Origin: Cyanobium sp. M30B3
GTDB lineage: Bacteria > Cyanobacteriota > Cyanobacteriia > PCC-6307 > Cyanobiaceae
Assembly (NCBI GenBank): GCA_018399015.1
Contig: CP073761.1
Span: forward strand, 1-64,000
Direction: 5' to 3'
DNA: 64,000 nt
Part shown: in pieces, positions 7,896 to 16,443 of the stretch
How the letters are laid out: every line of letters starts with the position of its first letter
Numbering within the stretch: the stretch's first letter is position 1
Translations under genes and position numbers: made by a program
Notes under the pieces: generated by a model
What the model was told of the DNA's origin: nothing
The model's database searches: none
The model's input: the letters and a program-made list of their open reading frames with translations, nothing else

Positions 7896-9076
7896 AGCGA
7901 ATCGGTCTTGCTCTTGAACTCGCCCAGCAGCAACTGCAGGTAGGTGACCTTGCGCAGCTTGATGTTGGCCGTCAGCGACATGCCCACCTGGAGGGGCAGG
8001 ATCTGGCCACCCTTGAGGCGGAACTGCTGGGAATTCAACGCAACCCTGGCGGGAAAGCGATAGGTGGGATGGCGCTCATCGGGTGGCAGGGCATCGGAGC
8101 CGATCGACTCCAGTGTGCCTTCGAGAACACCGAAATCGGTGGCGGGGAAGGAGTCGATGCTGATCTCCACAGGCTTGCCCACCTGTACAAAGCCGATGTC
8201 GCTGCTTTCAATCTCCACCCGGGCCTGCAGATCACGGAACGGCACGATCTTCATCACCGGCTCACTGCCCTGGGCCACAAAACCGGGGCCGGTGGGTTTG
8301 AGATCAAACACCAGGCCATCCACCGGTGAGCGCACATCCTGGTAGCGGATGTTGATGCTCAGTTCGGTGAGTTTGCTGCGCAGATCAGCCAGCTCACCAT
8401 CGAGCTGGGCCTTGGACTGGCGCAGGATGGCCTCCTGCCGCTTGCGATCCTGGGCCAGCTTTTCCAGCTCCCCCCTCACCTCCTGCACCTTGTTGCGCTG
8501 CTGCAGATACTGCAGCTCCTGCACGGCGCCTTCCTTCTGCAGTTGTTCGAGGCGATCCAGGATGTTCAGCTCCAGTTCGAGGTTGCGCCGGAGAGTCCTC
8601 TGTTCGGTGTCGTTGAGATTGAAATAGCGCTGCATCTCCAGCTGCTTGAGTTGCAGCTGCTCCTCCTTGGAGCGGATCGTATCGAGCGTGGCCTTGCGGC
8701 GATCGAGGGTGGCCTCGTTATCGAGCCGCAGCAACACCTCGCCCTGGCTCACCCGCTGGCCTTCCTTCACCAGCATCTCCTCCAGCACTCCGCCAACGGG
8801 CATCTGCACCGTCTTGACATCGCCGATCGGCTGCAGCTTGCCGGGGGCCACCACCACCTCATCGGTGCGGGCCAGCGCCAGCCAGGCCACGCCAGCCGCT
8901 GCGGTACCCACCAGCACCCAGGTGATCGTGCGGGCCAGAACGCGGGACTGCTGCAACGCCATCCCCCCCTGGCTGCTGGTGACCCGGCGCTCGATCGCGT
9001 TCTGGGCAGCGCGGAGCAGGGAACTGGAGGAGGGGCCCTTGGCCTTCGGGCCGGGGGGGGGAGTGATCCTGGTCAT
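7883..9076 (-). CDS. HlyD-family membrane fusion protein (type I secretion adaptor)
   Basis: Periplasmic adaptor linking an inner-membrane ABC exporter to a TolC-like outer membrane channel. The 397 residues have a Pro/Lys/Ser-rich cytosolic start, one membrane helix (about 50-70, ITWVLVGTAAAGVAWLALA) and a first half of the lipoyl/barrel-sandwich domain. A long coiled coil (about 125-230, rich in Leu/Glu/Gln/Lys) follows, then the second half with DVRSPVDGLVFDLKPTGPG, and a beta-barrel region. Its ATG overlaps the stop of the ABC transporter gene (TGATG), so the two are translationally coupled. No TolC gene or obvious exported substrate is in the window. Confidence 0.92.
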   Translation of the reverse strand: MTRITPPPGPKAKGPSSSSLLRAAQNAIERRVTSSQGGMALQQSRVLARTITWVLVGTAAAGVAWLALARTDEVVVAPGKLQPIGDVKTVQMPVGGVLEEMLVKEGQRVSQGEVLLRLDNEATLDRRKATLDTIRSKEEQLQLKQLEMQRYFNLNDTEQRTLRRNLELELNILDRLEQLQKEGAVQELQYLQQRNKVQEVRGELEKLAQDRKRQEAILRQSKAQLDGELADLRSKLTELSINIRYQDVRSPVDGLVFDLKPTGPGFVAQGSEPVMKIVPFRDLQARVEIESSDIGFVQVGKPVEISIDSFPATDFGVLEGTLESIGSDALPPDERHPTYRFPARVALNSQQFRLKGGQILPLQVGMSLTANIKLRKVTYLQLLLGEFKSKTDSLKRI

Positions 9077-12018
9077 CAGCCTGCCTCCTGCTGGCGGTAC
9101 AGCGCGTAATAACGGCCCCGACGCTCCATCAGGGCGTCATGGGTGCCCACCTCGGCGATCGCTCCCTCATGCAGCATCACGATCAGGTCAGCGCGCCGGA
9201 TTGTCGAGAGCCGGTGGGTGATGAAGAACACCGTGCAGTGGTGAAGCCCCTGGAGCAGGTTGTCGCAGACGCGGCGTTCGGTGTCGTAGTCGAGGGCGCT
9301 GGTGGCCTCATCGAGCACCAGCAGTTTGGGATTGGACAGCAGGGTGCGGGCCAGAGCCAGACGTTGCCGCTGGCCTCCGGAGAGACCGGCACCCCGCTCG
9401 CCCACCTGGGCGCTGTAGCCACCTGGCAGGTCCATGATGAAGTCGTGGGCACAGGCCATGCGCGCAGCCGTCACGATCGATTCACTGCTGGCATCCGGAT
9501 CGGTGAGGGCGATGTTCTCGGCAATGGTGCCGGTGAACAGGAGCGGCTCCTGGGGCACGATGCCGATCTGGCGGCGCAGGGAGTACAGCTCCACCTTGTC
9601 GATGTCGTAGTGATCGATCAGGATCCGGCCGGACGAGGGGGCATAGAGGCGGGTGAGCAGCTTCATCAACGTGCTCTTGCCGCTGCCGCTCTGGCCCACC
9701 ACGCCCACAAATGTGCCGGCTGGGATCTGCAGATCCACGTGGGACAGCACCGGTGGCGCACCACTGGTGAACGAGAAGGTCACGTCCTGAAACACCACCT
9801 CGCCATCGATCGGCGGCAGGGGGATCTTCTGTTTGTCGGCTTCATCTGACTCTTCCGGTGTGTCAACCACATCCGCGAGACGCTCAAACGACACCTTCAG
9901 CTCCTGGATGTTCTGCCAGATCGAGGAGAGCCGCAGCAGGGGCTGGGTGACGTAACCGGAGATGATCCGGAAGGCGATCAGCTGGCCGAGGGTCATCTCG
10001 CCCTTGAGCACCAGGGTTGCGCCCACCCAGAGCACCAGCAGCTGGGAGAGCTTCTGCAGCACCTGGGAGGTCTCCACAAGCGCTGTACCGGTGATCGTCT
10101 TCTCGAAACTGCGGGAGATGTAGCGGTTGTAGAGGTCCTGCCATTTCCAACGGCTGATCATCTCCACGTTCTGGGCCTTCACCGTCTGGATGCCGGTGAG
10201 CACCTCCACCAGATGGCTCTGGGTGCGGGCGTTCTCCTGGGCCGCATCGCGGTACTGACGGCGGAACAGGGGCGCGCCCAGCACGGTGAGCCCCACCTGG
10301 ATCGGCAGCACGCAGAGGGCGATCAGCGTGAGCAGCCAGCTGTAGAACACCATCACCACGATGTAGATCACCGAGAAGGCGGTATCGAGCAGCGTGGTGA
10401 GGGCCTGGCCAGTGAGGAATTCGCGGATCTTCTCCAGCTCCGCCACCCGGGTGCCCAGCTCCCCCACCGGCCTGCGATCGAAATAGGAGAGGGGCAGCCG
10501 CAGCAGGTGATCGATCACCTCGGCGCCGAGGCGCAGATCGAGCCGGTTGGTGGTCTCGGTGAACAGGAAGGTGCGCAGGGCGCCGATCAGCCCTTCCAGC
10601 ACCGTCACCACCACCAGGGCGATGCCCAGCACCTGCAGGGTGTCGAGGCTGCGCTGGCTGATCACCTTGTCGATGATCACCTGGATCAGCAGGGGGTTGG
10701 CCAGGCTGAACAGCTGCACCACGAAGGAGGCCACCAGCACCTGCAGCAGGATGCCGCGGTGGCGCTGCAACGCCGGCCAGAACCAGGCGAAGCTGAAGCG
10801 CTGCTCCGGGGTGCTGCTGCTGCGCTCCACCAGCAGCACCTCGATCCCCTCGGGGTAGGTGGCCTCGATCTGGGCTGGGGAGAGTTCCACCCAGCCATCG
10901 CGGGGTGAGGCCAGCACCATGCCCCGGGCATCGGCGGCCCGCACCACCGCGAAGCCCTCCTTCCAGGGCACCATCGCCGGCACCTGCAGGCGGTTGCCCT
11001 GGCTGGCGGGCACCTGCACGCCGGTGACGTGCAGGCCCATCATCGCGGCGATGTTGCCACAGAGCTGCAGATCGGGCGTCTGCCCGCGGCGCAGCACATC
11101 GCGCAGGATCTTCTCGATCGCATCGCGGCGGAAGGGAAGTTTCAGCTGGGCCGCCAGCATCTGGAAACAGGCCAGGGTCTCCTCCAGGGGGCCCTGGCCG
11201 CGCAGCAGCAACAGCTCCGGCCGGTCGCGCTGGCCGAGATCGAGGCCGCTGGCCAGGGGAGCCGGGGCCGGAGGCTGTTCAGCGGATACCAGTTCCAAAG
11301 GGGCTGGGGCCGACTCACCCGGCGGCGTGAGCAGCGCCATGGCCGCTGCCTGTGGCAGGGCGATCAAGCGGGGAGGCAGCGGCCCCCGACTGGCGGGAAC
11401 CCCGGCGGCGGGATCCAGCTGGGCGCCCAGGGGATGATCCACGAGGTTGTTGCTGGCCGCCAGCAGGAGCATCTCGTCCGGCCAGTTGCTCAGGGCCGCC
11501 TGGCCGGGAGGCACCAGCCGAGCCTGCCCGTGCAACTCACGCCAGGCTTCCAGCACCGGCACGCCGGCCTGGGCCCGGTGCCCAAGCAACGACGCCACCA
11601 GGGCCAGGGTCTCGACACTAAACAGCTGGGAAGCCGCCCAGGCGGCAAAGGAGTGCTCCTGCTTCAGCAGCTCCAGCACCAGCTGGTCCGGGATCGCCAG
11701 CGCCTCCAGCTCCGATGCCGCAGCCACTTCCTCACAGGCCCGGGCCCGCAGCAACGAGGCCAGACCCACGAAACTGCCCGGCCCAAGCTTCTCCGCCGTG
11801 TTGAGCACCCCACCGTCCTGCCAGAGCAGCCGGGCCGTGCCGGAGCGAATCAGCAGCACCTCCGCCGGGATGAGCGTGTCGTGGCAAAGGGGCTGGCCCA
11901 GCCGGAAGCGCCGTGACTCAGCCTGGCGCTCCAGCCGCTCGGCGGCCCGATTGCCGATCCCAGCAAAGGCGGGATGGTCCCGAAGGAGCGACGGAGTGGA
12001 CAGATCGGCTGGGGTCAT
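9076..12018 (-). CDS. Type I secretion ABC transporter with N-terminal CRP-like domain and degenerate C39 peptidase domain
   Basis: A 980-residue fused exporter. The first 150 or so residues resemble a cyclic-nucleotide-binding (CRP-like) fold (GPGSFVGLASLLRA). A linker is followed by a C39 peptidase-like domain (about 270-410) that lacks the catalytic QxECGxA cysteine motif, so it probably docks substrate, as in HlyB. Five or six membrane helices follow (about 430-720). The ATPase has Walker A GQSGSGKST (about 770), signature LSGGQRQRLALART and Walker B LLVLDEATSALD. Partners are the downstream HlyD protein and probably the upstream parvulin-like protein. The substrate is unknown. Confidence 0.93.
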   Translation of the reverse strand: MTPADLSTPSLLRDHPAFAGIGNRAAERLERQAESRRFRLGQPLCHDTLIPAEVLLIRSGTARLLWQDGGVLNTAEKLGPGSFVGLASLLRARACEEVAAASELEALAIPDQLVLELLKQEHSFAAWAASQLFSVETLALVASLLGHRAQAGVPVLEAWRELHGQARLVPPGQAALSNWPDEMLLLAASNNLVDHPLGAQLDPAAGVPASRGPLPPRLIALPQAAAMALLTPPGESAPAPLELVSAEQPPAPAPLASGLDLGQRDRPELLLLRGQGPLEETLACFQMLAAQLKLPFRRDAIEKILRDVLRRGQTPDLQLCGNIAAMMGLHVTGVQVPASQGNRLQVPAMVPWKEGFAVVRAADARGMVLASPRDGWVELSPAQIEATYPEGIEVLLVERSSSTPEQRFSFAWFWPALQRHRGILLQVLVASFVVQLFSLANPLLIQVIIDKVISQRSLDTLQVLGIALVVVTVLEGLIGALRTFLFTETTNRLDLRLGAEVIDHLLRLPLSYFDRRPVGELGTRVAELEKIREFLTGQALTTLLDTAFSVIYIVVMVFYSWLLTLIALCVLPIQVGLTVLGAPLFRRQYRDAAQENARTQSHLVEVLTGIQTVKAQNVEMISRWKWQDLYNRYISRSFEKTITGTALVETSQVLQKLSQLLVLWVGATLVLKGEMTLGQLIAFRIISGYVTQPLLRLSSIWQNIQELKVSFERLADVVDTPEESDEADKQKIPLPPIDGEVVFQDVTFSFTSGAPPVLSHVDLQIPAGTFVGVVGQSGSGKSTLMKLLTRLYAPSSGRILIDHYDIDKVELYSLRRQIGIVPQEPLLFTGTIAENIALTDPDASSESIVTAARMACAHDFIMDLPGGYSAQVGERGAGLSGGQRQRLALARTLLSNPKLLVLDEATSALDYDTERRVCDNLLQGLHHCTVFFITHRLSTIRRADLIVMLHEGAIAEVGTHDALMERRGRYYALYRQQEAG

Positions 12019-12048
12019 CGACGGGGGCGTTGTTCAACTGAAACAAGA

Positions 12049-12083
12049 GCCTGGAACTGAAGCCTTGCTGGAACTGAAGCGCT
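12049..12083. repeat. 17-base direct repeat upstream of the ABC transporter gene
   Basis: CTGGAACTGAAGC occurs at 12051-12063 and again at 12068-12080, in the 143-base gap between the parvulin-like gene and the ABC transporter gene. It could be a tandem duplication without function or a paired binding site. No convincing -10/-35 pair was identified nearby. Confidence 0.6.
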
Positions 12084-12161
12084 GATCAACCGCCAATCAA
12101 GGCAGTCGAACGATAGGGACGAACGAGCAAAAAGGAGAAAAGAACCGTCCACTGTGAGGCA

Positions 12162-12869
12162 TCAGGCCAATGGTGGCCGATCGGGCTGGGCTCGCAAGCG
12201 CTGATCCACCTGCTCCTCAAGCCATTCTTCCAGCATCTCCTGGGTCATGGCCTGGGCCGCTTCGGGCCCAAAAACAGCCGGCACGAAACTCTCCAGTCGC
12301 ACCAGGATCCACCATGATTCTATAGCAAACGGATCCAGTACAACCCCTGGCTCAGCTGTGCGCAGGCGGTTCACGAGATCGGGATGGGCCTGATCCAGGG
12401 GCACGGGCCCCACGATGCCGCGGGTGGCACGCTCCGGGCCCTGCGCGTGCTCGGCAGCAAGGTCAGCAAAACTGGCCTCCCCTTCCCTGATCTGGAGGCA
12501 CAACTCGCGGGCCAGGCCGCCATCCGCCGTGCGCAGCAGGCTGTAGACCACCTGGTCCAGACCGGGCTTGCGCTTCAGAAAGCGGGACTCCGCCTGGGCG
12601 CTGAACTGACGATCGGCAAAGGCACGCAGACGCAGCGGATAGGTGATCTGATACTCCAGATCCGCAGCAGAGAGCTGGTGAGCACGGCAGAAGGCCTCCA
12701 GCCCTTCCTGATCCGCAATTCCGTTCTCCTGGACAAAGCGGCGTTGCGCCACGGCCATGTCCCCATCACCCAGGGCGATCCCCTCCAGCGCTTCCTCCAG
12801 CAACACCTGCCGCAGGTAGGGGCGCAGCAGGCGGTAACGCGCCAGCCGTGAGAGTTCCACCTGGTCCAT
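12162..12869 (-). CDS. Parvulin-type peptidyl-prolyl isomerase-like protein of the secretion operon
   Basis: About 235 residues. The N-terminal half is a helical SurA/PpiC-like chaperone region (VLLEEALEGIALGD, FVQENGIADQEGLEAFCRAHQL). The C-terminal half resembles a parvulin domain (REGEASFADLAAEHAQGPERATRGIVGPVPLDQAHPDLVNRL). No signal peptide is seen, so it may act in the cytoplasm on an export substrate. That role is inferred from its place directly upstream of the ABC exporter and HlyD genes. I chose ATG 12869 because it has an AGGG about eight bases upstream; ATG 12893 is an alternative. Longer in-frame extensions run into queE on the other strand and look non-coding. Confidence 0.75.
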   Translation of the reverse strand: MDQVELSRLARYRLLRPYLRQVLLEEALEGIALGDGDMAVAQRRFVQENGIADQEGLEAFCRAHQLSAADLEYQITYPLRLRAFADRQFSAQAESRFLKRKPGLDQVVYSLLRTADGGLARELCLQIREGEASFADLAAEHAQGPERATRGIVGPVPLDQAHPDLVNRLRTAEPGVVLDPFAIESWWILVRLESFVPAVFGPEAAQAMTQEMLEEWLEEQVDQRLRAQPDRPPLA

Positions 12870-12977
12870 CAGCACCCTGCTCGATCCGCGCATCCTGCCA
12901 ACTTGGCGATGCGGCGGCCGGTGCCGGAGAACGCCTCGCCACCTGGCCTCCCTATGGTGTGATGGGCAGCGATCCCG

Positions 12978-13634
12978 ATGGAAGGATTCCCCACGGCGAA
13001 CAAGCCCACCGGCAGCGACTCCCCCACCCTGCCGGTGGTGGAGACCTTCCACTCCCTGCAGGGAGAGGGGCTGCACGCCGGCCGCAGCGCCTTCTTCATC
13101 CGCCTCGCGGGCTGCACGGTGGGCTGCAGCTGGTGTGACACCAAGCACTCCTGGCCCCAGGGGGTCCATGCCCGGCGGCCACTCCCCGAGCTGGCGGCCG
13201 AAACCAGCGCCGCCGCCAGCGCCGGCGCGGCCTTCGTGGTGATCACAGGCGGCGAGCCGCTACACCACAACCTGGCGCCCCTCTGCGACGCCCTGGCCGG
13301 GGCGGGCCTGCCCCTCCACCTGGAGACCAGCGGCGTGGATCCGCTCTCGGGCCGGTTCGCCTGGATCACCCTGTCACCGAAGCGCCACCGGCCGCCGCTT
13401 GCAGCCCTGCTGGCCTGCTGCCAGGAGCTGAAGGTGATCGTGCATGAACCGGCCGACCTCGCTTTTGCCGAGGCCATGGCGGCCGCCGCCTGCGCCGCCG
13501 GCAACCGGCCAGCCCTGCTGCTGCAGCCAGGCTGGCAGAGCGATGGCGGCCGGGAGCTGGCCCTGGAGCACGTGCGCCGCTCTGCCGGCTGGCGGCTCAG
13601 CCTGCAGAGCCACAAGCTGCTGGGCGTGCGCTGA
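12978..13634 (+). CDS. queE: 7-carboxy-7-deazaguanine synthase (radical SAM)
   Basis: Radical SAM enzyme converting 6-carboxy-tetrahydropterin to 7-carboxy-7-deazaguanine in queuosine/preQ0 synthesis. The cluster motif is CTVGCSWCDT (CxxxCxxC) at about residues 51-58, preceded by the typical VETFHSLQGEGLHAGRSAFFIRLAGC. ITGGEPL follows. At 218 residues it is normal for the family. The pathway partner queC lies 0.7 kb downstream on the same strand, with the ecotin gene between them on the other strand. Confidence 0.95.
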   Translation: MEGFPTANKPTGSDSPTLPVVETFHSLQGEGLHAGRSAFFIRLAGCTVGCSWCDTKHSWPQGVHARRPLPELAAETSAAASAGAAFVVITGGEPLHHNLAPLCDALAGAGLPLHLETSGVDPLSGRFAWITLSPKRHRPPLAALLACCQELKVIVHEPADLAFAEAMAAAACAAGNRPALLLQPGWQSDGGRELALEHVRRSAGWRLSLQSHKLLGVR

Positions 13635-13645
13635 GGCGGAGCTGC

Positions 13646-14179
13646 TCAGAGCTGCTGGGCCTTCTGCTGGCTGGTTTCCGCCTTCCACAACCGCCAGCGC
13701 ACCTGCAGGTCGCGGGGGGCATAGACCACGATCGGCAGGCTGGCGTTGTAGCGCACCACCGTGGGTTCACCGCCCAGGGCCACGAACTGGCGCCGGGGCG
13801 GCTGGTCCGGCGGACAGGCCATGCGGGTGGAGGCCACCGCGTCGCCACCACTCACCCGGAAGATGCGGTAGCCCCAGCCGGGGATCGTCTCGGACTCAAT
13901 CCGGCCTCGCAACAGCTGGCGGTTGCAGTCCACCTCCAGCTCCCGGCCCACGATCAGCTCCACCCGCCAGTCAGCCGGGTTGGCGGAGATGGCCGGATCA
14001 CTGCTGGGCTTCAACACCCCCGGCAGCTGGATCACCCAGCGCCGCTGGTCGGCCGCCGCCGCCGGGTAGGGCTTGAGGTCGAGCCGGGGAATGGCCGGGG
14101 CGGCGGCCGGCGCCCCCAGGCCGGTGAGCAGGGCGAGCGCCACCGCCAGGCGGCCCCATCCAGCAGTAGCCCAGATCAC
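13646..14179 (-). CDS. eco: Ecotin-type serine protease inhibitor with Arg at the reactive site
   Basis: Ecotin is a periplasmic dimeric inhibitor of trypsin-fold serine proteases. This 177-residue protein (GTG start) has a signal peptide of about 26 residues (LAVALALLTGLGAPAAA). It aligns along the full ecotin fold: VELIVGRELEVDCN, GWGYRIFRV, STRMACPP, RYNASLPIVVYAPRDLQVRWRLWKAE. The two cysteines of the family's disulfide are kept (VDCN, MACP). E. coli ecotin has STMMACP with Met at P1; here the motif is STRMACP, so Arg falls at P1, which suggests a trypsin-like target. It is convergent with queE, about 11 bases from its stop. Confidence 0.9.
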   Translation of the reverse strand: MIWATAGWGRLAVALALLTGLGAPAAAPAIPRLDLKPYPAAAADQRRWVIQLPGVLKPSSDPAISANPADWRVELIVGRELEVDCNRQLLRGRIESETIPGWGYRIFRVSGGDAVASTRMACPPDQPPRRQFVALGGEPTVVRYNASLPIVVYAPRDLQVRWRLWKAETSQQKAQQL

Positions 14180-14359
14180 GGTTGTTCGGCGTCACTGGCG
14201 CCATGGTGACCCCGGCTGCTGCCGCCGTCCAGCGCGGACGTCGGAGAGGATGGAGAGCGCAACAACGCCTTGTTCGTCCAGCTCGGACGGGCGCCTCCAT
14301 TCCCCAGACGGGTGCGCCTTCAGCCGGACCAGGTTCCGCAGTGCACCGCGCGACCACCC

Positions 14360-15058
14360 ATGCCGCCCCCAGCAACGCCCCAGCCCAGCGCCATCGCCCT
14401 GCTCTCCGGCGGCCTGGATTCGGCCACCGCCGCGGCCCTGGCCCAGGAGGCCGGCTACCGGGTGATCGGCCTCTCCTTTGATTACGGCCAGCGCCATCGC
14501 CGCGAGCTGGAGGCGGCCCGGCAGGTGGCCACCAGCCTGGGGTTGGCGGAGCACCACACCATCAGCGTCAACCTGGCGGCCTGGGGGGGCTCGGCCCTCA
14601 CCGACACGGCGATCGCCGTGCCCACCGCGGGCGTGCAGGAGGGGGTGATCCCCAGCACCTACGTGCCGGGCCGCAACACCGTGTTCATCGCCCTCGGCCT
14701 GAGCCTGGCGGAGGCCCGCGGCGCCGAGCGCCTGGTGCTGGGGGTGAATGCGGTGGACTACTCCGGCTACCCCGACTGTCGGCCCGACTACCTGGCCGCC
14801 TTTCAGGGCCTGGCCGACCTGGCCAGCAAGGCGGGCCGGGAGGGCCACGGGGCCCAGCTGTGGGCCCCCCTGGTGCAGTGGAGCAAAACGGAGATCGTGC
14901 GCCAGGCCCAGCGGCTGGGGGTGCCGATCGCCAGCACCTGGAGCTGCTACAGCGGCGGGCCCGAGCCCTGCGGGCTGTGCGACAGCTGCCGCATCCGCGA
15001 CGACGCCCTGGTCGCCGCCGGCCTGGCCGCCCTGGCCAGTAGTGGCCCCCGGCCATGA
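14360..15058 (+). CDS. queC: 7-cyano-7-deazaguanine synthase
   Basis: ATP-dependent enzyme turning 7-carboxy-7-deazaguanine into preQ0. The ATG at 14360 starts [21 protein letters not shown] and places the PP-loop SGGLDS near the N terminus, as in the family. An upstream in-frame extension to 14270 lacks family likeness. The zinc-binding cysteines are in [18 protein letters not shown] near the C terminus. Length is about 232 residues. The stop overlaps the pabB start (ATGA), so queC and the folate genes probably form one transcript. Confidence 0.96.
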
Positions 15059-16443
15059 GCGCCAGCCATCGCCGGGCCCTGCCCTGGTGCACCCCCGAGC
15101 GGCTGCTCGACGCCCTGCTGCCCCAGCTGGAGCGGCCGGGGCTGGTGTGGCTGGACGGCGACGGCTCCCGGCTGGGCGGCCGGAGTTTTCTGGCCATCGA
15201 CCCCCAGGCCGAGGTGGTGTGCCGGGGCCTGCCGGGCGAGGAGAGCTCCGGCGACCCCTTCAGCGTCCTCACCGAGCTGCAGGCCGATGGCGGCCACTGG
15301 CTGGGCTGGCTGGGCTACGAGGCGGCGGCCTGGCTGGAGCCCGGCAGCCACTGGCGGCCGCCGGAGATGGCGCTGCTCTGGGCGATGCGGGTGGATCCGC
15401 TGCTGGTGTTTGACCATGGGGCCCGGCAGCTGTGGCTGGACGGGGAGGATCGTCAGCGCCTGGAGAGCCTGGGCCAGCGGCTGGTGGGGCTGATCCAGGC
15501 CCTGGGTGATCCCCGGGATCCCCAGCCCACCGGCCCGGGATGTCCTGCCCCTGCCCCCCACCTGCCCCTGGACGGCTGGCACTGGCACGGCAATGCCGAC
15601 GGCTTTGCCCGGGGCGTGCGCCAGCTCCAGGAGCTGATCGCCGCCGGCGACCTGTTCCAGGCCAACCTCACCAGCTGCTGCGAACAGCTGCTGGCGGAGC
15701 CTCTGGACCCGCCGGCACTGCTGGCCCTGTACCACCGGCTGCGCCGGCACTGCCCGGCCCCCTTCGCCGGCCTGGCCATCGGCGGAGCGGCGGCGGCCGG
15801 GGAGGCGATCCTCTCGGCGTCCCCGGAGCGCTTCCTGCGGCTGGCGGAGGGTGGGCTGGTGGAAACCCGGCCGATCAAGGGCACCCGGCCCCGCCACGGC
15901 GACCCCCTGGCCGACGCCGAGGCGGCGGCCGAGCTGGTGAGCAGCCCCAAGGACCGGGCGGAGAACGTGATGATCGTGGACCTGCTGCGCAACGACCTGG
16001 GCCGGGTGTGCCGGCCGGGCTCGCTGCGGGTGCCCCAGCTGGTGGGTCTGGAGAGCTACAGCCAGGTGCATCACCTCACCTCGGTGGTGGAGGGCCAGCT
16101 GCGTGAGGGCCTGGGCGCCGCCGAGCTGCTGCGGGCCTGCTGGCCCGGGGGCTCGATCACCGGCGCCCCCAAGATCCGCGCCTGCCAGCGGCTCAATGCC
16201 CTGGAGCCCCTGGCCAGGGGCCCCTACTGCGGCAGCCTGTTCCGGCTGCGAGGCGGCCACAGCCTGGACAGCAACATCCTGATCCGCTCGCTCTTTGTGC
16301 AGAACCGCAGCCTGCGGGTGCATGCCGGCTGCGGCATCGTGGCCGACTCCGATCCACAGGCGGAGGCTGAGGAACTGGGCTGGAAACTGCAGCCGCTGCT
16401 GCAGGCCCTGGGCGGCGGCGATCCGCACGGCGATCTGTCCTGA
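15055..16443 (+). CDS. pabB: Aminodeoxychorismate synthase component I (anthranilate synthase I family)
   Basis: Makes 4-amino-4-deoxychorismate from chorismate for p-aminobenzoate and folate synthesis. At 462 residues it has the chorismate-binding domain in the C-terminal half: [62 protein letters not shown] and [15 protein letters not shown]. The PIKGT Lys-containing motif is typical of PabB rather than TrpE. The neighbour is pabC, which supports this assignment. The start overlaps the queC stop. Confidence 0.93.

What the first reader, a model, noticed from the sequence alone, without database searches (positions are those of the whole stretch)
13646..14179. Ecotin with Arg at P1 inserted between queE and queC
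Ecotin normally has Met at P1 (STMMACP). This one has STRMACP, a change expected to favour trypsin-like enzymes. Its presence between two deazaguanine synthesis genes on the opposite strand suggests separate acquisition. A periplasmic defence against grazers' or predators' proteases is possible (inference).
Basis: partly seen in the sequence, partly recalled or inferred. Interest (0 to 1): 0.55.

Follow-up and report, generated by a model that had tools for sequence, protein, structure and literature searches.

The report
Arginine-P1 ecotin of picocyanobacteria
A tiny water-dwelling cyanobacterium carries a gene for ecotin, a protein that blocks digestive enzymes such as trypsin; its blocking tip carries arginine rather than E. 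coli's methionine, which turns out to be the usual form in its family rather than an oddity.

Summary
Confirmed: window 13646-14179 (-) encodes an ecotin (PF03974, E 3.5e-41). Arg119 (codon CGC, 13823-13825) aligns with the E. coli P1 residue Met84; the best-scoring PDB sequence is an E. coli ecotin with Arg there. The gene lies antisense between queE and queC.

First, Arg at P1 is not unusual here: in 115 Cyanobiaceae orthologues P1 is Arg 83, Leu 17, Lys 14, Ala 1, never Met, and a review already reports natural Arg or Lys P1 in Rhizobium, Tatumella and B. glumae. Second, the place is old and shared: ecotin is antisense beside queC in 111 of 120 fetched loci, and its divergence tracks that of QueC (r 0.77). 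Relatives without it have queE beside queC (6 of 6 congeners with a queC hit; 27 of 30 sampled QueC loci). So it probably entered a queE-queC tandem long ago and was lost repeatedly.

Most likely a secreted inhibitor of outside trypsin-like proteases. The target (grazer, predator, own protease) is untested. The family-wide Arg/Lys-or-Leu P1 is the part worth following.

The parts
13646..14179 (-). ecotin gene, 177-aa precursor, GTG start, TGA stop
   Evidence: ORF; PF03974 E 3.5e-41; PDB ecotins; AlphaFold2 model and fold searches
13823..13825 (-). P1 codon CGC, Arg119 of the precursor (E. coli mature position 84)
   Evidence: alignments; codon
14099..14179 (-). N-terminal stretch (residues 1-27) read as a Sec signal peptide; cleavage site by eye near residues 27-29
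   Evidence: sequence; read by eye, no signal-peptide program was run
12978..13634 (+). queE, 7-carboxy-7-deazaguanine synthase; 11 bases lie between its stop codon and that of ecotin (convergent)
   Evidence: (TIGR04322 E 2.4e-34, 118.7 bits, below its cut-off of 200)
14360..15058 (+). queC, 7-cyano-7-deazaguanine synthase; divergent from ecotin (ORF listed from TTG 14270; ATG 14360 read by eye as the likely start)
   Evidence: PF06508 E 2e-70; TIGR00364 above its cut-off
14180..14359 (.). 180 bases between the divergent ecotin and queC starts, which would hold both promoters if the two are separately transcribed; a simple sigma-70 scan found no site
   Evidence: inference
15055..16443 (+). 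pabB-like chorismate-binding enzyme, next member of the recurring block queE-(ecotin)-queC-pabB-pabC
   Evidence: PF00425 (best model TIGR01824, below its cut-off)

Best explanation
The gene makes a secreted, envelope-located ecotin whose reactive-site loop presents Arg (P1) to the S1 pocket of trypsin-like (family S1) serine proteases from outside the cell, and blocks them by the standard ecotin mechanism: a substrate-like 80s loop plus a second contact site, working as a dimer. Ecotin entered a queE-queC tandem early in the history of the Cyanobiaceae or of the part of it that carries the gene, was passed down with that block, and has been lost several times. In this family P1 has moved repeatedly among Arg, Lys and Leu, which should shift the inhibitor between trypsin-like and chymotrypsin- or elastase-like targets. 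Shown here: identity, P1 residue, predicted fold, recurring place, P1 distribution. Inferred: history of gain and loss, secretion, dimer, inhibition, trypsin preference, and that the proteases are those of grazers or predators.
For: PF03974 E 3.5e-41. Model with mean pLDDT 92.3; all 29 PDB chains at E <= 0.001 are ecotins, best Z 16.9 over 137 residues. Cys50 and Cys87 (E. coli numbers) in 115 of 115 orthologues, P2 Thr in 114 of 115. The window protein keeps Arg108 and Asn110, the site-2 residues whose double mutation weakens E. coli ecotin. P1 Arg 83, Leu 17, Lys 14, Ala 1 of 115. M84R raises affinity for trypsin-like MASPs. Ecotin antisense beside queC in 111 of 120 loci; distance correlation with QueC 0.77, highest of 999 permutations 0.08, though this does not exclude transfer of the whole block; closed queE-queC sites. 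Of four trypsin-family hits in the genome, three are HtrA/Deg-like and the fourth has Ser, not Asp, at the hand-read position 189, so a basic P1 does not point to it.
Against: No activity was measured. P1 may matter less than assumed: a reference title seen (Seong et al. 1994) says the P1 Met of E. coli ecotin is not crucial for specificity, and a passage of PMC7773321 says some P1 exchanges leave trypsin inhibition unchanged. Tatumella citrea ecotin with P1 Arg inhibits thrombin only weakly. P1 is not unusually changeable (15 changes, rank 61 of 150 columns), so there is no sign of diversifying selection; its few residues (4) are matched by its direct neighbours in the loop (2 to 4). In Daphnia magna chymotrypsin activity is ten times that of trypsin (PMC2873468, passage), so Arg is not the obvious choice against that grazer. 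Most sampled genomes of the family lack the gene (281 of 400; 163 of 251 among the good-quality ones), so it is dispensable. Most orthologues have Pro, not Arg, at site-2 position 108 (108 of 115).
Confidence: 0.6

Rival explanations
1. The inhibitor restrains an own protease: it keeps an S1-type protease of the cell in check in the periplasm.
For: The genome has one S1-like protease outside the HtrA/Deg-like group, secreted by the look of it (L193:949-2331 -, PF00089 E 2.2e-09), and three HtrA/Deg-like proteases with PDZ domains.
Against: Hand-read position 189 of that protease is Ser, which does not suit Arg P1. The review states that E. coli ecotin does not target endogenous proteases (PMC9904509, Introduction).
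Confidence: 0.1
2. Protection against bacterial predators or lytic bacteria that secrete trypsin-like proteases, rather than against protist or animal grazers.
For: Same biochemistry as the best explanation; P1 basic in 97 of 115 orthologues. That predatory bacteria secrete trypsin-like proteases is recalled, from no call.
Against: Nothing tested here separates this from grazer defence.
Confidence: 0.25
3. P1 is nearly neutral in this family: ecotin works mainly through its other contacts, and Arg, Leu and Lys reflect drift by small codon changes.
For: P1 changes (15) are close to the column median of 13, and its direct neighbours show as few residues as P1 does. Arg codons are CGN in 82 of 83 and Leu codons CTG or CTC in 17 of 17, so Arg and Leu are one base apart. 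Passages and a title say P1 exchange can leave E. coli ecotin active on trypsin.
Against: Only four residues occur at P1 in 115 sequences, and Met never. M84R and M84A strongly change affinity for MASPs.
Confidence: 0.25

Closest known systems
E. coli ecotin (PF03974; inhibitor family I11 per PMC9904509)
   Same: Fold, two Cys, STxMACP reactive loop, Arg108/Asn110 and Trp67-Gly68-Tyr69
   Different: P1 Arg for Met; about 10 extra residues after E. coli position 29; Asp70 replaced by Arg; 134.4 bits against the NCBIfam cut-off of 162
Engineered E. coli ecotin M84R (PDB 7pqo; 1p0s and 1xx9 by their titles)
   Same: Same P1 residue in the same STRMACP loop
   Different: Natural rather than designed; cyanobacterial insertion; other loops differ
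Natural basic-P1 ecotins of Rhizobium and Tatumella (Arg) and Burkholderia glumae (Lys), PMC9904509
   Same: Basic P1 in nature; a Rhizobium sp. T1473 ecotin fetched here reads ASTRMACP (L217)
   Different: Proteobacterial; the Rhizobium sequence lacks the insertion
Cyanopeptolins of other cyanobacteria (PMC6070996)
   Same: One residue decides the target: Arg or Lys for trypsin, hydrophobic residues such as Leu or Tyr for chymotrypsin; the ecotin P1 set here is mostly Arg, Lys, Leu. A likeness of working only
   Different: Small peptides, unrelated to ecotin in origin and structure

Membership tests
Ecotin (Pfam PF03974) | Match to the family profile above its curated cut-off over the whole domain | tested here: met
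   140.4 bits against 22.2, profile 2-122 of 122
Ecotin (Pfam PF03974) | Ecotin fold | tested here: met
   predicted model, pLDDT 92.3; Z 16.9 to 7pqn_C, 137 aligned, rmsd 2.2
Ecotin (Pfam PF03974) | Two conserved Cys (E. coli 50 and 87; that they form a disulfide is recalled) | tested here: met
   both present in the window protein and in 115 of 115 orthologues
Ecotin (Pfam PF03974) | Site-2 residues Arg108 and Asn110 | tested here: met
   present in the window protein; in the family Arg108 is kept by only 6 of 115 (Pro in 108) and Asn110 by 88 of 115
Ecotin (Pfam PF03974) | Secretion to the periplasm by a signal peptide | tested here: inconclusive
   typical N-terminus by eye; no predictor run
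Ecotin (Pfam PF03974) | Homodimer that binds two proteases | not testable with these tools
   only single-chain prediction on hand
Ecotin (Pfam PF03974) | Inhibits S1 serine proteases | not testable with these tools
   needs an assay
E. coli-type ecotin equivalog (NCBIfam NF002987) | Score above the curated equivalog cut-off | tested here: not met
   134.4 bits against 162; so not filed as this equivalog
E. coli-type ecotin equivalog (NCBIfam NF002987) | P1 Met, the 'one-size-fits-all' residue of E. coli ecotin (that it defines this model is my reading) | tested here: not met
   Arg; Met in 0 of 115 family orthologues

The most novel reading that the evidence does not exclude
Picocyanobacterial ecotins are a gene-encoded counterpart of the cyanopeptolins: an anti-digestion protein of small aquatic phototrophs that lacks the broad Met P1 and switches between trypsin-type (Arg/Lys) and chymotrypsin-type (Leu) specificity, Arg to Leu by a single base, following the digestive proteases of local grazers.
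Probability: 0.2. Interest if true: 0.65.

Novelty: new member of a known kind. Interest (0 to 1): 0.35.

Why it matters
[quoted passage not shown] A conserved ecotin lineage without Met at P1 in picocyanobacteria would give a simple genetic handle on whether surviving digestion is a selected trait in these cells. The term 'cyanobacteri' does not occur in that review's held text. Searches for ecotin with cyanobacteria (6 papers) and with Synechococcus (2 papers) listed none that, by title and abstract opening, is about such an ecotin; those papers were not opened, and the library lacks most subscription journals.

Tried and rejected
Recent phage or plasmid origin: no relative in the IMG/VR viral contigs at this tool's close-relative sensitivity; no DNA match of 13400-14500 in phage records; one Salmonella phage record at 38% protein identity; 22 plasmid records, all under 60% identity. 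Nothing supports it. Plasmid records were not searched with DNA.

Known RNA element between ecotin and queC: no Rfam match at gathering threshold in 12000-16000. Promoter and terminator scan of 12800-14800: none found.

Another protease inhibitor in the genome: one family tried, Inhibitor_I42, no match.

P1 as a fast-changing hot spot: rejected, rank 61 of 150 columns.

By genus code, g34 has Arg 17, Lys 12, Ala 1 and no Leu; g6 Arg 26, Leu 8; the window's genus g1 Leu 4, Arg 3.

Ecotin in the phylum of a Desulfomicrobium locus: 3 of 297 genomes; no donor found.

Papers: a Cyanobium/Synechococcus bioactivity paper and a review on toxic picocyanobacteria gave no protease-inhibition data in the passages found. 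Searches (11 papers; 38, 15 listed; 3,491 holding two of five terms, 5 listed, none with 'ecotin') gave listings only, apart from those two papers.

Full report
What is there. The minus-strand ORF 13646-14179 (177 aa, GTG start) is an ecotin: PF03974, E 3.5e-41, 140.4 bits against a cut-off of 22.2. It is the only match in the genome. It does not reach the NCBIfam cut-off of the ecotin equivalog (134.4 against 162 bits). The AlphaFold2 model (150 residues, from residue 28 on, 53-row alignment) has mean pLDDT 92.3 and pTM 0.84. All 29 PDB chains with E <= 0.001 are ecotins; the best Z is 16.9 over 137 residues, rmsd 2.2.

P1. The loop STRMACP aligns without gaps with E. coli STMMACP, so Arg119 of the precursor sits at mature position 84, P1; its codon is CGC at 13823-13825. 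Of the three PDB alignments printed, the first (7pqo, 101.6 bits) and third (1id5, with 1p0s and 1xx9) carry Arg at that place and the second (7cbk, 98.8 bits) Met. 7pqo is M84R ecotin with MASP-1; [quoted passage not shown] Against a strong role of P1: a passage of PMC7773321 says some P1 exchanges leave trypsin inhibition unchanged, and cites a 1994 paper titled that P1 Met is not crucial. [quoted passage not shown]

Is Arg unusual? Not in this family. Of 400 Cyanobiaceae genomes 119 have an ecotin (17 of 59 genera; 88 of 251 good-quality genomes); of 13 genomes of the window's genus 6 do. I fetched 120 places, leaving out five weak or fragmentary ones. P1 was Arg in 83, Leu in 21, Lys in 14, Ala in 1 and absent in 1 degraded copy (that tally prints 84 Arg because the window gene was entered twice, and its one Met is E. 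coli). Without four distant paralogues and the degraded copy, 115 orthologues give Arg 83, Leu 17, Lys 14, Ala 1, Met 0. In the genus, 7 loci give Leu 4 and Arg 3; two of the 7 come from G002, which is 6% contaminated. The review by De Meyer and Carlier (PMC9904509; sections 3, 4 and 6 read) reports Arg in all Rhizobium and several Tatumella, Lys in Burkholderia glumae, and commonly Met or Leu in animal pathogens. So natural basic P1 is in print.

How P1 changes. On a quick tree of 134 rows, made without the P1 column, the Arg, Lys and Leu groups need at least 18 changes together, against 40.9 on average when shuffled. The rows include other bacteria and the distant paralogues; 55 of 129 inner branches are open and outgroup branches are long, so neither the root nor the direction of change is known. 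Restricted to the 115 orthologues, P1 needs 15 changes, close to the column median of 13 (rank 61 of 150): not a hot spot. Its four residues are few against 6-12 in the flanks of the loop, but the direct neighbours (82, 83, 85, 86) have as few, 2 to 4. Arg is CGN in 82 of 83 (62 CGC), Leu is CTG or CTC (17 of 17), one base apart.

Other anatomy. Cys50 and Cys87 are in 115 of 115 and P2 Thr in 114 of 115. The window protein keeps Trp67-Gly68-Tyr69 and Arg108/Asn110 of the second site, while most orthologues have Pro at 108 (108 of 115). Nearly all orthologues carry about 10 extra residues after E. coli position 29 (for example 114 of 115 rows filled at one such column), missing from the ten readable outside sequences shown, E. 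coli included. What they do is unknown.

Place. queE ends 11 bases from the ecotin stop codon (convergent) and queC most likely starts 180 bases from the ecotin start (divergent; read by eye). In 111 of 120 loci ecotin is antisense and next to queC among the genes tested; in 85 of 120 queE lies on the other side, and in 17 a PpiC-like and a type I secretion gene are found there instead (tblastn with eight window proteins at E 1e-8; other genes between them were not looked for, and some contigs are short). Of the 7 congeners without ecotin, 6 have a queC hit and all 6 have queE directly beside it; the seventh (G007, 77% complete) has no queC hit. In G008 queE-queC is closed while ecotin lies elsewhere. 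Of 30 QueC loci, the best scores from 151 genomes, 27 show queE beside queC without ecotin, 1 has ecotin, 1 is cut and 1 shows no queE; this sample leans to small genomes. Ecotin distances correlate with QueC distances (r 0.77, 106 loci) and QueE distances (0.66, 83), as QueC does with QueE (0.67, 80). The G041 copy matches only the first half of the profile and holds a stop codon, yet still lies beside queC. My reading: an old insertion into a queE-queC tandem, mostly inherited and several times lost; gain and loss were not modelled on a species tree, and transfer of the whole block is not excluded. In a class-wide sample 25 of 388 genomes had an ecotin, all in the window's family, so it probably came from outside the cyanobacteria; the donor is not known.

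What it does. By family knowledge ecotin blocks S1 proteases from outside. The genome's own trypsin-family hits are three HtrA/Deg-like proteins and one S1-like protein; in the last, position 189 read by hand is Ser, which does not call for an Arg P1. Trypsins and chymotrypsins are the main gut proteases of Daphnia magna, with chymotrypsin activity ten times that of trypsin (PMC2873468, passages), which does not favour Arg against that grazer. In cyanopeptolins one residue, Arg/Lys or a hydrophobic one such as Leu or Tyr, selects trypsin or chymotrypsin (PMC6070996, passages). The ecotin P1 set Arg/Lys/Leu parallels this. The parallel is suggestive only; no assay, habitat test or grazing test was possible.

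Verdict. Real, correctly described, ordinary for its family. New member of a known kind, with a family-wide pattern that deserves a follow-up.

Noticed in passing
L166, L167, L168, L170: A distant second ecotin-like protein in some Cyanobiaceae (P1 Leu, 27-42 bits to PF03974), with none of the tested neighbours beside it; G222 has both kinds.
   Followed up: partly
L193:949-2331 (-): S1-like protease of the same genome, secreted by the look of it, with a C-terminal tail that resembles PEP-CTERM anchors (recalled); Ser at hand-read position 189.
   Followed up: partly
window 9076-12018 (-) and 12162-13169 (-): Type I secretion ABC transporter with a cNMP-binding domain beside a PpiC-like protein that matches, below its cut-off, a peptide-maturation family (TIGR04500), next to queE; in 17 of 120 loci this pair lies beside ecotin in the flipped direction.
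   Followed up: no
L169 (G041) and G129:C7: Degraded ecotin copies with stop codons; L169 still lies beside queC, G129 was not fetched.
   Followed up: no
L051, L056, L063, L074: Ecotin without queE or queC within the fetched flanks in four loci; three of the four have P1 Leu.
   Followed up: no
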